Part shown: positions 12,653 through 50,173 of the stretch, piece after piece | Layout of the letters: each line of letters opens with the position of its first letter | Numbering within the stretch: the first letter of the stretch is position 1 | IMG/VR virus record: IMGVR_UViG_3300003324_000465 | Span: 42,877-106,876 of that record | DNA from: a virus | Length of the DNA: 64,000 nt | Direction: 5' to 3' (one strand) | Notes under the pieces: model-generated | What the model was told of the DNA's origin: nothing | The model's input: the letters and a program-made list of their open reading frames with translations, nothing else | Database searches by the model: none | Program-made: the position numbers and the translations under genes

Positions 12653-12748
12653 CACCAGAAGCCTTCTAAGATATTACCCCTACTTCCCTATAGATTTACT
12701 AGTAGCGTGCCTTACAATGGTTCTGGTGACGTTACAGGGCATTGTAAC
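12653..12748 (-). ncRNA. Structured 3' element, copy A
   Basis: Read on the minus strand right after the stop at 12752. A hairpin (GTTACA/TGTAAC) comes first, then an 8-bp closing stem CACCAGAA/TTCTGGTG (12721-12728 with 12653-12660), a conserved TTGTAAGGCACG segment, and a GGGGTAATATC segment before the closing strand, followed by GAAAATAATA. Copies B, C and D share these parts. Confidence 0.65.
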
Positions 12749-12751
12749 ACA

Positions 12752-13696
12752 TTACTCTTCAAATGTTGACTTCTTGCGCGATTTTTTAGCTGTACTCTGA
12801 TCTAGTTTTTGCGTTTTACCTGTGTATGCTTCTGGATTAGTAAAATCTATATCGTTTTCCGAAGATTCCATAAGAGAAGGATATGTAGATATATTATATT
12901 CTTCAAATATCTCTAATAAATCACGACCTTCCAAAAGATCATTCAATGCATCATGCGGCCATGGTTTAACCCATGATGCAATATCATAACGCGGCATTGC
13001 TAAAAATACTGGTGAAATTGGTTGGAAATTTGCTGTAATAAAGAATGATCTATTGGTTTTAATACCTTCGCCAGTTGTCTTTAGTTTAATATCTACTTCA
13101 TGTAGTTTCTTAGGCTCTCCATCGGGACCTTCAATGCTAGTTCCAAGATCAAACAAACTTTGTAGATCATGTTTTCCTCCCTCTGGTCCAGAACTTCCTT
13201 CCAAAATACGTATTTTATTAAGCGGCTTTGCTTCCCCTACTAAAGGCTTTGGTAATACCTTGCTACTATTAGCAATACGTACAAATTGATTTTTTTCATC
13301 TGGATAGATGAGTTGTCCTTCTTCTGTAAACATTACAGGTGTCTTATCTATAACATTTATTGCAAATCGTGTTTTAAATCCACGTCTCTCTTGTGATCCT
13401 TTTTCATAATTCTTTGCTACATATGCCCACAAGGGATCACTAAAAGGATTCTTCCAATCAAGGAAAACACGCACCTTTGATTCTACACCACCTTTAAGAC
13501 CAGTCCACCAAGTTTCACGGAAGACTACTTCATCATCAGGCTCATTTAGTATATTACCTTCTTCATCTACGCCAGGCAATACACGTAGCAAACGTATACC
13601 TGCATGACGATCAACAAACTGTGTTTCAAATACTGCTGTGCCTTCACTGTTACCACCAATATTAACTTTTTCTTTAAGCTTCTGTCCAAACGCCAT
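12752..13696 (-). CDS. Putative single-stranded DNA-binding protein
   Basis: Start taken at MAFGQKLKEK (13696), preceded by GAAGGAG; an in-frame ATG at 13810 would lie over the promoter. 314 residues, an OB-like beta-rich middle part and a charged C-terminal tail (KKSRKKSTFEE). It has its own strong promoter and sits next to primase and helicase, which fits a phage ssDNA-binding protein of the gp32/gp2.5 functional class. I see no diagnostic motif, so this is mainly context. Confidence 0.5.
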   Translation of the reverse strand: MAFGQKLKEKVNIGGNSEGTAVFETQFVDRHAGIRLLRVLPGVDEEGNILNEPDDEVVFRETWWTGLKGGVESKVRVFLDWKNPFSDPLWAYVAKNYEKGSQERRGFKTRFAINVIDKTPVMFTEEGQLIYPDEKNQFVRIANSSKVLPKPLVGEAKPLNKIRILEGSSGPEGGKHDLQSLFDLGTSIEGPDGEPKKLHEVDIKLKTTGEGIKTNRSFFITANFQPISPVFLAMPRYDIASWVKPWPHDALNDLLEGRDLLEIFEEYNISTYPSLMESSENDIDFTNPEAYTGKTQKLDQSTAKKSRKKSTFEE

Positions 13697-13781
13697 TGCT
13701 ATGACTCCTTCATAAAATAATGCGTATTCATAAGCCTTCATGCGATTCCGCTTTGGTATGAGGAATTTCTGAGGTAATGGC

Positions 13782-13810
13782 AGTATACCATGGAAATATA
13801 CATGAGTCAA
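13782..13810 (-). promoter_or_regulatory. sigma70-type promoter of the ssDNA-binding-like gene
   Basis: Minus strand TTGACT (13805-13810), 17-base spacer, TATACT (13782-13787). It follows structured element B and precedes the ATG at 13696 by about 85 bases. Confidence 0.75.
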
Positions 13811-13846
13811 CTAAGACTTTAGACCTAAAAATATTCCGATTATTTT

Positions 13847-13954
13847 CACAGGAAGCCCTTAGAGGAAATAAAAAAAGCTACCCCTATCCTTTTATATAAA
13901 TAGGGGTAGCGTGCCTTACAATGGTTCCTGTGAGCTTACAGCGGCATTCTGTAA
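13847..13954 (-). ncRNA. Structured 3' element, copy B
   Basis: Minus strand. Hairpin TTACAG/CTGTAA, then 8-bp closing stem CACAGGAA/TTCCTGTG (13925-13932 with 13847-13854), conserved CCATTGTAAGGCACGCTAC, and an inner 9-bp stem CTACCCCTA/TAGGGGTAG. The closing strand is followed by AAAATAATC. The last codons and stop of the 102-aa gene lie inside the element. Confidence 0.68.
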
Positions 13955-14224
13955 TGGAGAGGTAACAGCTAAAACATCATCACTAAAAAAATTTGTTTTT
14001 ATAATCAATTCGCCATGCTGTTCTAATAAACGATCAATTGTAGCTTGTAGTTCTGGATCAATATATAGCTGTATTTCTTTGGAATCACGTTTAAACCATA
14101 AACCAAAATCAAATGCAACTAATTCTTTTGTATACGTAGGTTTAGAAATACGAATTTTACCGATATTTTTTATATTTAGTTCTGGAGAAAGAGATTGTGT
14201 CTTGTATCGTTTACTCATCTTCAT
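13916..14224 (-). CDS. Hypothetical protein, 102 aa
   Basis: The C-terminal codons (PLQNAAVSSQEPL) are written in the bases that also form structured element B, so the end of this gene and the RNA element share sequence. No family recognised. Confidence 0.55.
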   Translation of the reverse strand: MKMSKRYKTQSLSPELNIKNIGKIRISKPTYTKELVAFDFGLWFKRDSKEIQLYIDPELQATIDRLLEQHGELIIKTNFFSDDVLAVTSPLQNAAVSSQEPL

Positions 14225-48113: not shown

Positions 48114-48155
48114 TTCGCGGGCAATTTATAAACCGTAGCAAAGGAATAAAATAAC

Positions 48156-49712
48156 ATGAGAAAAAATTTAACACAGGGATCAAAGAAAACAGTCAGTACA
48201 AAGCCGGTGGCACCAGTAGCCATGGGAGTAGCTCATAATCCTAATTATCGGTCAACACCAGTATCTTCATTTGAAGGCAATACTAACTATAAGCTTGATC
48301 CAATTGCAACATTGAAACTGGTAACTGCAAGTTCATTTTTTGGTGAGCCTTCTTTTTATGAAGGAAATACACGTACAGCGTTATTTGAACAGACAATTGA
48401 CGCGGCCCTTGATTATGATTTTTATGCGACACTTGATTGGGCTGGTGTATTACGTAATGCGTATTATATGCGCCTTAATCCTCAAATCATCATGACAAGA
48501 GCAGCAGTGCATCCAAAGCGTGGTGAGTTTACAAAACAATATCCCGGCGCATTTAATACATTTATGGAAATTGTTGCGAAAAGACCGGATGATCTTACTG
48601 CACAGGTAGAATATTACTTGTCAAAGTTTGAAGATCGTAAGGTTCATGGGGTTAAAGCCTCTCGTATGCCTGGAATTATGAAGCGTTCAATAGCACACCG
48701 TCTTGAGCAATTTAATCGTTATCAAATGGCGAAATATGCTAATCGTGGTATCGGTTTAATTGATATAGTTCGTTTAACACATGCTCATGGAGCATTAATT
48801 AACGAACTTATGAAAACTGGCGGAATTAGTATCGATGAGGAAGACCAAACATGGCGTACTATGCGTAGCGCTGGTAAGTCATGGACAGAGATTATTAATT
48901 CAGGCATCACACTAACACACCAAGATATACTTTTTCAAATGCGTTCTATTTTTGATTCTGTTAAGGGTGATACTGCTCAATATATTGCGGGCAAATTTCT
49001 TAATGGGGTCAAGAATGGTAAAATGTTCCCATATCAGTATTATATTGCTTTTCAGCAATTGAGTGAGGATACATTCAGTAATAAGATACTAGCGTTAGAT
49101 ACACTTCAAGAAGCCCTTGATATGTCTATTCGAGAACAGCCAAAATTAGGCGGAAGTGTTGCGGTTGTGGCAGATAATAGCGGATCTATGAATAATCCAC
49201 TTAAAGTAGACGGTCATCAAGTTACAGCAGCGGAAGTAGCTAATTTATCTGCAATTATGACAGCCTACAATGCTACTGATGGAGATGTATTCTCGTTTGG
49301 TACCACGTTAGCAAAGTTATCATATAGCAAGCGTGATGGTATAATGACAAATGCAAAACGGCTTGCTGATTTATCTACTGGATGGGGCACAAATATGGGA
49401 TTGTTCTGGCAATACGCTATACAACATAAAAAGAGTTATGATACCGTATTTGTATATAGTGATATGCAAGCTCTACCTGTTTCTGGATACGGTTATAACA
49501 ACGAAGTAAGAAACATGTATGACATTGTGAACGAATATCGCCGCAAGCTAAATCCAAAGGTAAATGTTTTCTACGTGCAAGTAGCAGGCTATGATAATAG
49601 TGTACAACCAGATAATACATATCGTGCAACTAACCTGTCTGGATGGACAGGTAAAGAGGTTATGTATGCTGCTGCTGTAAATGCTGTGTGGGATGAAGTA
49701 GATAGTAAATAA
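48156..49712 (+). CDS. rsr: TROVE / Ro60-like RNA-binding protein
   Basis: 518 residues, the usual length of Ro60. The TROVE helical-repeat ring covers about 30-330 (YYLSKFEDRKVHGVKASRMPG, AIAHRLEQF, MRSAGKSWTEIIN). The C-terminal third (from about 332) is a vWA domain with MIDAS motif VVADNSGSMNN. Bacterial Ro (Rsr) binds Y RNAs and misfolded RNA; Deinococcus Rsr works with PNPase in RNA decay. Some mycobacteriophages also encode Ro and Y RNA. AAAGGA precedes the ATG. Confidence 0.93.
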   Translation: MRKNLTQGSKKTVSTKPVAPVAMGVAHNPNYRSTPVSSFEGNTNYKLDPIATLKLVTASSFFGEPSFYEGNTRTALFEQTIDAALDYDFYATLDWAGVLRNAYYMRLNPQIIMTRAAVHPKRGEFTKQYPGAFNTFMEIVAKRPDDLTAQVEYYLSKFEDRKVHGVKASRMPGIMKRSIAHRLEQFNRYQMAKYANRGIGLIDIVRLTHAHGALINELMKTGGISIDEEDQTWRTMRSAGKSWTEIINSGITLTHQDILFQMRSIFDSVKGDTAQYIAGKFLNGVKNGKMFPYQYYIAFQQLSEDTFSNKILALDTLQEALDMSIREQPKLGGSVAVVADNSGSMNNPLKVDGHQVTAAEVANLSAIMTAYNATDGDVFSFGTTLAKLSYSKRDGIMTNAKRLADLSTGWGTNMGLFWQYAIQHKKSYDTVFVYSDMQALPVSGYGYNNEVRNMYDIVNEYRRKLNPKVNVFYVQVAGYDNSVQPDNTYRATNLSGWTGKEVMYAAAVNAVWDEVDSK

Positions 49713-49755
49713 AGGATAAAGGCGCGCAGAGATAATATCAAAGCGCGTTTTATAA

Positions 49756-49830
49756 TGCAGAATCAGCTAATAGGTAGGTTGGTACTCTCTGAAAGTGCCT
49801 GTACAGGTTCGAGTCCTGTTTCTGTAACCA
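49756..49830 (+). tRNA. tRNA-Gln (CTG)
   Basis: Acceptor TGCAGAA/TTCTGTA, anticodon loop CTCTGAA, T loop TTCGAGT, ACCA. Confidence 0.85.
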
Positions 49831-49841
49831 AAGGAATTTTT

Positions 49842-50081
49842 ATGAAACATTATATTTTGTTGTTACATACTTCTATACCTAGATATTTTGCGGGCGAGTT
49901 TATTTATAGTGATTTAGTAGATGGTACAACATTTGTAGAAATAGAATGGACAAAACAAATGTCCATGGCTACACCTATGACATATGAGGAAGTCAATCAA
50001 TTAAAAACATGGTGTGATCAGTATCGAAGCGAGTTTACACAAATACTAGATACATCTCTGGAAATTATAATGCAGCCGTAG
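49842..50081 (+). CDS. Hypothetical protein, 79 aa
   Basis: Start MKHYILLLHTSIPRYF after AAAGGAATT; beta-rich start then an alpha-helical end. Structured element D follows its stop directly. Function unknown. Confidence 0.6.
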   Translation: MKHYILLLHTSIPRYFAGEFIYSDLVDGTTFVEIEWTKQMSMATPMTYEEVNQLKTWCDQYRSEFTQILDTSLEIIMQP

Positions 50082-50097
50082 AATATCTCTATAACGT

Positions 50098-50173
50098 CAC
50101 CAGCGCCTTCCTAAGAGGCGATAGGATCAAAGTGGTATCTTGGTATGGGTAGAATATCCTGAGCCTTCTGGTG
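50098..50173 (+). ncRNA. Structured 3' element, copy D
   Basis: CACCAG (50098-50103) pairs with CTGGTG (50168-50173). Inside: CGCC...GGCG hairpin, then AGGAT...ATCCT, the conserved ATGGGTAGAATATCC and GAGCCTT, followed by AAAAATAATAG. The same order as copies A to C, but on the opposite strand of the genome. Confidence 0.65.

What the first reader, a model, noticed from the sequence alone, without database searches (positions are those of the whole stretch)
12653..50173. Four-copy structured element where genes end, on both strands
Copies A (12653-12748), B (13847-13954), C (31276-31367) and D (50098-50173) share ordered parts: optional TGTAA hairpin, CACCAGAA-type closing stem, a GGGGTAATATC-like segment and GGCTTCTGGTGAAAATAATA-like 3' end. 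Each lies at a stop codon and just before a terminator (A, C) or promoter (B, D). One follows the capsid gene. It matches no riboswitch or ribozyme class I can recall. It may stabilise or process mRNA 3' ends.
Basis: seen in the sequence. Interest (0 to 1): 0.76.

Follow-up and report, generated by a model that had tools for sequence, protein, structure and literature searches.

The report
Dispersed phage gene-end hairpin element
A group of little-known phages carries a family of roughly 110-base hairpin-forming elements placed right where genes and one tRNA end, probably marking or protecting RNA 3' ends much as REP hairpins do in bacteria, although what they do has not been tested.

Summary
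A-D are four of nine strong copies in this 107-kb phage record. A profile trained only on copies from other phages recovers all four at 25-55 bits; the best score in 50 simulated genomes is 15. Related phages carry at least nine further clear copies. No Rfam family, deposited phage or sampled bacterial genome matches.
The element has a conserved 5' leader (AAUGCCC), a long imperfect stem (P1), a variable inner hairpin and an AAAUAAUA-like tail. P1 covaries, even among four copies at one orthologous site. In 18 of 22 copies it starts at a stop codon or just after tRNA-Gln. Sites are gained and lost.
Best reading: a dispersed 3'-end hairpin family working like bacterial REP elements or T7 RNase III sites. 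RNA-level evidence is mixed and no processing or stability was tested. It is neither the phage's Y RNA, whose candidate lies elsewhere, nor a terminator by itself. Family new; kind of function known.

The parts
12643..12745 (-). copy A: leader, P1 arms (12709-12729 with 12652-12672), inner region, AAAATAATA tail
   Evidence: 83.8 bits with model R2, which was built with it; 40.8 bits with a profile from other phages only
12605..12635 (-). intrinsic terminator just after copy A
13838..13950 (-). copy B: P1 arms 13913-13933 with 13846-13866; the upstream gene ends 35 nt inside it
   Evidence: 82.7 bits; 34.7 bits
13877..13910 (-). strong intrinsic terminator hairpin followed by U7, inside the P1 stem of copy B
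13782..13810 (-). sigma-70-type promoter-like site downstream of copy B (TTGACT-17-TATACT, extended -10)
   Evidence: consensus match only; region total not above shuffles
31265..31366 (-). copy C: P1 arms 31329-31349 with 31272-31292 (P1 weak in this copy)
   Evidence: 83.6 bits; 55.1 bits
31205..31242 (-). intrinsic terminator after copy C
   Evidence: the tool's own scan, lists none there
50080..50184 (+). copy D: P1 arms 50097-50117 with 50154-50174; downstream of Ro60-type gene, tRNA-Gln and a 108-aa ORF
   Evidence: 70.6 bits; 24.8 bits
50242..50270 (+). sigma-70-type promoter-like site after copy D (TTGACT-17-TAATAT, extended -10)
   Evidence: consensus match only

Best explanation
The copies belong to one family of dispersed 3'-end hairpin elements of a phage lineage. 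Each copy lies, as a rule, immediately after a coding sequence or after tRNA-Gln, on the transcribed strand. Once transcribed, its arms pair to form the long P1 stem around a variable inner hairpin, with a conserved single-stranded leader in front and an A/U-rich tail behind. The stem most likely defines and protects the 3' end of the upstream RNA: it blocks 3'-5' exonucleases and/or is cut by a double-strand-specific RNase such as RNase III, so that upstream and downstream messages (or the tRNA precursor) are separated. Where it sits within about 15 nt of a stop codon it may also lower translation, as published for REP sequences. Some copies carry or adjoin an intrinsic terminator (A, B, C, O), others precede a promoter-like site (B, D, G, L) or the next gene's start (I, J, K, O, P, U). 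Shown: the family, P1 covariation, position, orthologous and empty sites. Inferred: transcription of the element, RNA-level action, processing and protection.
For: P1 (columns 18-38 with 86-107): 15 of 21 pairs have changes on both sides; with five leader pairs included, 42 such cells against 27.2 in shuffles (0 of 500), slid versions 11-17 (17 rows, two of them near-identical). At one orthologous site (terminase/portal; I, K, O, P) 11 of 21 pairs have two-sided changes among only four sequences, which 4 of 500 shuffles reach. Swap tests: cognate arms pair better than swapped arms for P1 (P 0.0008) and the inner hairpin (P 0.0003). Mean folding z-score of 15 copies -2.8. The sense strand of the rod folds more stably than the antisense strand in 13 of 17 copies, Wilcoxon P 0.005; for whole elements 11 of 17, P 0.15. 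Position: of 22 copies, 10 have the stop codon ending between 11 nt before and 4 nt inside the element and 4 have it 13-50 nt inside; 4 start 3-5 nt after tRNA-Gln; own genome 5 of 9 near a predicted same-strand gene end against 3.9% of random positions. Copy C seems to have been gained next to a pre-existing terminator, so it adds something other than termination.
Against: G-U and A-C cells in P1 are equally common (32 and 29; 21 and 21 in the better-paired half), so P1 alone does not show selection on sense RNA. Copy F lies on the strand opposite to the neighbouring genes; L lies 70 nt beyond a stop codon behind a terminator-like hairpin; V and W have no ORF of 50 codons before them. The leader is conserved outside P1, which a plain exonuclease barrier or RNase III site would not need. 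P1 is weak in C and in several other copies (8-12 Watson-Crick pairs of 21). Sites are gained and lost, so no single site is indispensable. No transcript data.
Confidence: 0.4

Rival explanations
1. It is foremost a DNA-level element: a non-autonomous mobile inverted repeat (MITE/REPIN-like, or a folded single-strand recombination site) that inserts after gene ends, where it does least harm. Its fold is selected for mobility, not for RNA function.
For: Presence/absence at orthologous sites: terminase/portal copies mark one clade (100/99) and are missing in its sister and outgroups; G002 has tRNA-Gln followed directly by the promoter region, without the element; the capsid-candidate stop is followed by a terminator-like hairpin without the element in G001, G003 and G008. 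G-U is not preferred over A-C.
Against: The copies at the terminase/portal site were inherited long enough to fall to 42-61% identity while P1 was kept, so selection acts after insertion. 18 of 22 copies are oriented with the upstream gene or tRNA. No transposase or recombinase linked to it was found among the proteins examined, no constant target duplication was noticed, and within one genome the copies are not near-identical (best pair A/B 70%).
Confidence: 0.25
2. It is a transcription attenuator or terminator module: the inner hairpin with U-run ends transcription, and the P1 arms with local hairpins in the 5' arm form an alternative fold that lets polymerase through under some condition.
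For: Strong intrinsic terminators inside the stem of B and O, and by eye in X, the copy beside the ortholog of B's gene in G001. A, B and C are all tied to a terminator. A local hairpin in the 5' arm that excludes P1 shows a cognate-pair signal of its own (P 0.002).
Against: Only B and O of 21 copies tested have a strong internal terminator; H, Q, S and U have none and D a weak one. In relatives the terminator-like hairpin after the capsid candidate exists without the element. The 5'-arm signal may follow from near-palindromic arms.
Confidence: 0.15
3. It is a binding site for the phage's Ro60-type protein, i.e. a tag that brings mRNAs and tRNA-Gln precursors to a Ro60 particle.
For: Most lineage records with a copy also carry a Ro60-type gene (G000, G001, G002, G003, G009, G010, G014), and the tRNA-Gln copy lies downstream of it.
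Against: The phage's Y RNA candidate is a separate RNA at 47645-47756. G004 has diverged copies (E 0.0016-0.43) and no Ro60 in 85 kb; G007 has Ro60 and no copy. Shared ancestry alone may explain the overlap. The Ro60-binding motif of Y RNAs (recalled) was not seen in P1.
Confidence: 0.1
4. It is a stop-codon read-through or ribosome-control pseudoknot: the leader after the stop codon pairs with the inner GGGUA.
For: The stop codon abuts the leader in 10 of 22 copies; leader/GGGU pairing of at least 4 pairs is possible in many copies and reaches 7 in R.
Against: Cognate leaders and inner segments do not pair clearly better than swapped ones (P 0.39; P 0.15). Copies after tRNA-Gln (E, Q, S, T) have no coding sequence to read through.
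Confidence: 0.07

Closest known systems
REP / BIME elements of bacteria
   Same: Dispersed extragenic hairpins at gene ends; a significant proportion lie 1-20 nt from an ORF end, where those closer than 16 nt are reported to lower translation (PMC12306157, passages read); recalled: they protect upstream mRNA from 3' exonucleases and spread by transposase or gene conversion.
   Different: Sequence relation not tested; about 105-115 nt with a conserved unpaired leader and tail; about nine copies, mostly co-oriented with the upstream gene; in a phage; also after a tRNA; no RAYT transposase identified.
Bacteriophage T7 RNase III processing sites (recalled, no paper read)
   Same: About ten related imperfect hairpins between genes of one phage, on the transcribed strand, separating messages.
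   Different: No sequence relation tested; this element is longer, partly outside operons (before promoters or terminators) and has a conserved leader; cleavage not shown.
YrlA / Y RNA (Rfam RF02553)
   Same: Occurs in the same phage near a Ro60-type gene.
   Different: No Y RNA match on the element; the phage has its own YrlA-like candidate at 47645-47756.
Integron attC sites (recalled)
   Same: Imperfect palindrome right after the stop codon, structure kept better than sequence.
   Different: The GTTRRRY/RYYYAAC boxes (recalled) were not seen by eye; copies are scattered, not in one array.

Membership tests
REP elements | dispersed extragenic palindromic hairpin, many copies | tested here: met
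   9 strong copies in one 107-kb record, P1 stem; fewer than the >100 per genome quoted for REPs (abstract seen in the listing)
REP elements | close to stop codons | tested here: met
   14 of 22 copies with a stop codon ending from 11 nt before to 50 nt inside
REP elements | REP consensus sequence and RAYT transposase | not tested
   no comparison with a REP consensus was run; no transposase among the proteins examined
RNase III processing site | about two turns of double helix | tested here: inconclusive
   21-pair imperfect P1; 8-18 Watson-Crick pairs by copy
RNase III processing site | cleavage by RNase III | not testable with these tools
   needs RNA data
Intrinsic terminator | hairpin followed at once by a U-run | tested here: not met
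   strong inside only B and O of 21 copies; in A and C it lies outside the element
Y RNA (YrlA) | match to RF02553 | tested here: not met
   no YrlA match on A/B (E up to 10) or on D (E up to 5); the hit lies at 47645-47756
Any Rfam 15 family (riboswitch, ribozyme) | covariance-model match | tested here: not met
   only tRNA at the gathering cut-off in the window and nine further loci; for the A/B region at E up to 10 only far-sub-threshold hits
Mobile inverted-repeat element | filled and empty sites | tested here: met
Mobile inverted-repeat element | target-site duplication, cognate transposase | tested here: inconclusive
   none noticed by eye in the flanks; no systematic search

The most novel reading that the evidence does not exclude
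A mobile, two-state 3'-end RNA of a virus: a roughly 110-nt element that spreads to gene and tRNA ends of a phage lineage and is then kept because its switch between a local 5'-arm hairpin and the long P1 stem, with or without an internal terminator, sets whether a transcript ends, is processed or continues.
Probability: 0.15. Interest if true: 0.78.

Novelty: new variant of a known kind. Interest (0 to 1): 0.5.

Why it matters
REP-like gene-end hairpins are known from bacterial chromosomes. A mostly co-oriented, covarying, gained-and-lost family in a phage lineage would give a small system in which the question whether such repeats are selfish or functional 3'-end signals can be tested, with natural filled and empty orthologous sites.

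Tried and rejected
Riboswitch or ribozyme: Rfam gave nothing on the element. Y RNA: rejected because the YrlA-like candidate lies elsewhere. Leader pseudoknot: potential pairing in many copies, swap tests not significant. Hairpin P0 between leader and 5' arm: no cognate signal (P 0.59). AAAUAAUA tail as a T4-type late promoter: the motif is not enriched upstream of genes on the sense strand. Small conserved peptide from the leader AUG: seen in some copies only and broken by one-base indels (read by eye). Structure of the capsid candidate: model unusable, so no fold search was made.

Relatives outside the lineage: pattern hits L014/L015 share only the 5' half (21.7 and 17.6 bits, E 0.021 and 0.16) and were found by that very pattern; L016-L018, L020-L022 and L074 are judged chance hits. 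One genome contigs pattern gave 0 hits, the other one hit without support. Weak G000 candidates M and N were dropped because the model did not recover them at E up to 1. Rows dropped from A6 before the swap test: five (four reverse-strand echoes and window 47234). L013 was dropped, as a near-copy of L007. Y was not part; T was not part.
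Full report
What was checked. The window is bases 42,877-106,876 of a 106,876-base virus record. The four copies are present; alignment gives 63% mean column identity. A profile from the four copies finds further copies in the rest of the record and in relatives found through the terminase. A covariance model built from 17 copies (R2) finds nine strong copies in the record, at 70-104 bits: A, B, C, D in the window and, in record coordinates, 6784+, 25210-, 28256-, 35703+ and 41756- (these copies were part of the model). The independent check is: a profile trained on eight copies of other phages finds eight of these nine at E 2.8e-6 or better and the ninth (F) at 0.0049, against a best of 15.4 bits in 50 simulated genomes.

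Distribution. The phage is remote from deposited phages: one terminase match at 25% identity and portal matches at 27-29% among 50,697 records. A portal profile brought 16 viral loci. With R2, 10 of 14 records searched have a match at E up to 1; two of these ten (the records of L014 and L015) I judge chance. In the lineage, clear copies (E 1e-5 or better) are I and E (G009), K (G010 and L007), U (G010), O (G013), P and Q (G003), R (G002) and S (G001, also in G014). T (1.2e-4), Y (0.0016), X (0.030), V (0.032) and W (0.43) are weaker and were accepted after reading the sequence, because of place (T, directly after tRNA-Gln) or because of an orthologous neighbour gene (X beside the ortholog of the gene at copy B, 49% identity). 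G005, G006, G007 and G008 have none. Element queries against deposited phages gave only short chance-level matches.

Anatomy. Leader AAUGCC(C) nearly invariant; 5' arm of P1 (consensus ACAGGAAGCC...AGAG) and ACGAUAG; inner hairpin; 3' arm (CUUAGA.GGCUUCUGGUG); A/U-rich tail. P1 lies in one register in nearly all copies. Covariation: (17 rows) and, more telling, (four orthologous copies). Swap tests support P1, the inner hairpin and, unexpectedly, a local hairpin inside the 5' arm that excludes P1 (21 rows). They do not support the leader pseudoknot.

RNA or DNA. For sense RNA: position and orientation with the upstream gene, and a more stable sense than antisense rod (13 of 17, P 0.005; copies are related, so P is optimistic). 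Not for it: G-U equals A-C in P1, and whole elements show no clear strand bias (11 of 17, P 0.15). I lean to RNA, not firmly.

Position. In 14 of 22 copies an ORF of at least 50 codons on the same strand ends between 11 nt before and 50 nt inside the element; four copies follow tRNA-Gln by 3-5 nt. In D the same tRNA-Gln lies upstream with a 108-aa ORF between. The ORF before H was not among my predicted genes. Copies without a close upstream end: F (plus strand inside a minus-strand gene block), L, V, W.

History. At the terminase/portal junction the element is present in G003, G009, L007/G010 and G013 and absent in G000, G001, G002, G004, G005, G006, G007 and G008. On the portal tree the carriers form one clade with support 100/99, so one gain is the simplest account. 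G002 shows the tRNA-Gln/promoter junction without the element. After the capsid candidate, G001, G003 and G008 have a terminator-like hairpin without the element and G002 has neither, read by eye, so copy C looks inserted between stop codon and terminator.

Mechanism. Termination alone fails: only B and O have a strong internal terminator, and at C the terminator appears older than the element. A Ro60 tag is possible but unsupported: Ro60-type genes occur in 8 of 13 records, overlapping with the element as shared ancestry would, and a YrlA-like RNA (30.1 bits, below the gathering score of 69) lies at 47645-47756. What remains is a 3'-end hairpin of REP or RNase III-site type. [quoted passage not shown] T7 RNase III sites, attC boxes and the Y RNA binding motif are recalled. 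The paper searches (listings only, apart) showed nothing on such an element in phages; the library holds only open-licence papers.

Noticed in passing
window 47645-47756 (+), with similar GTAGCGG...TACAACG stretches near 47225, 47447 and 47780: YrlA (Y RNA-like) candidate with tRNA-like T- and D-loop parts, 30.1 bits (gathering 69), upstream of the Ro60-type gene 48156-49712; possibly a small array of Y RNAs.
   Followed up: partly
window 1448, 11530, 18642, 21370, 45316, 47737, 48109, 52003, 54042, 55783, 56758 and others: Repeat family ~AATAATNCGCGGGCAATTATT; GCGGGCAA occurs 15 times on the plus and 2 times on the minus strand of the record. Possibly a phage promoter or regulator site.
   Followed up: partly
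window 39344-41929: Terminase large subunit looks split by an intein at the Walker A motif (GRAIGK|C ... HN|S), also in the relatives; read from the alignment consensus.
   Followed up: no
L070 (G004) and L069/L072 (G002): The capsid-candidate gene is interrupted in two relatives; in G004 the downstream stretch contains a GATGATGATATAGTCTGA motif resembling a group I intron core (motif recalled).
   Followed up: no
window 50195-50235; L011 region after 5298 (minus strand); L026 16480-16520: A/T-rich blocks and TTAAC-N5-TTAAC direct repeats (OmpR/Pho-box-like, recalled) sit just upstream of promoter-like sites that follow several copies and the empty tRNA-Gln site.
   Followed up: no
window 45710-62454 and L010: 27 tRNA genes (22 in the window, 5 in the first 20 kb of the record) plus an RNA ligase (L010 11620-12927) and a second vWA protein (L010 2140-3240).
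   Followed up: no
L015 5673-5734 (+), L014 3487-3546 (-): Two related siphophage-like contigs carry a 5'-half-like sequence, in L015 between portal- and capsid-like genes on the opposite strand; weak and pattern-selected.
   Followed up: partly
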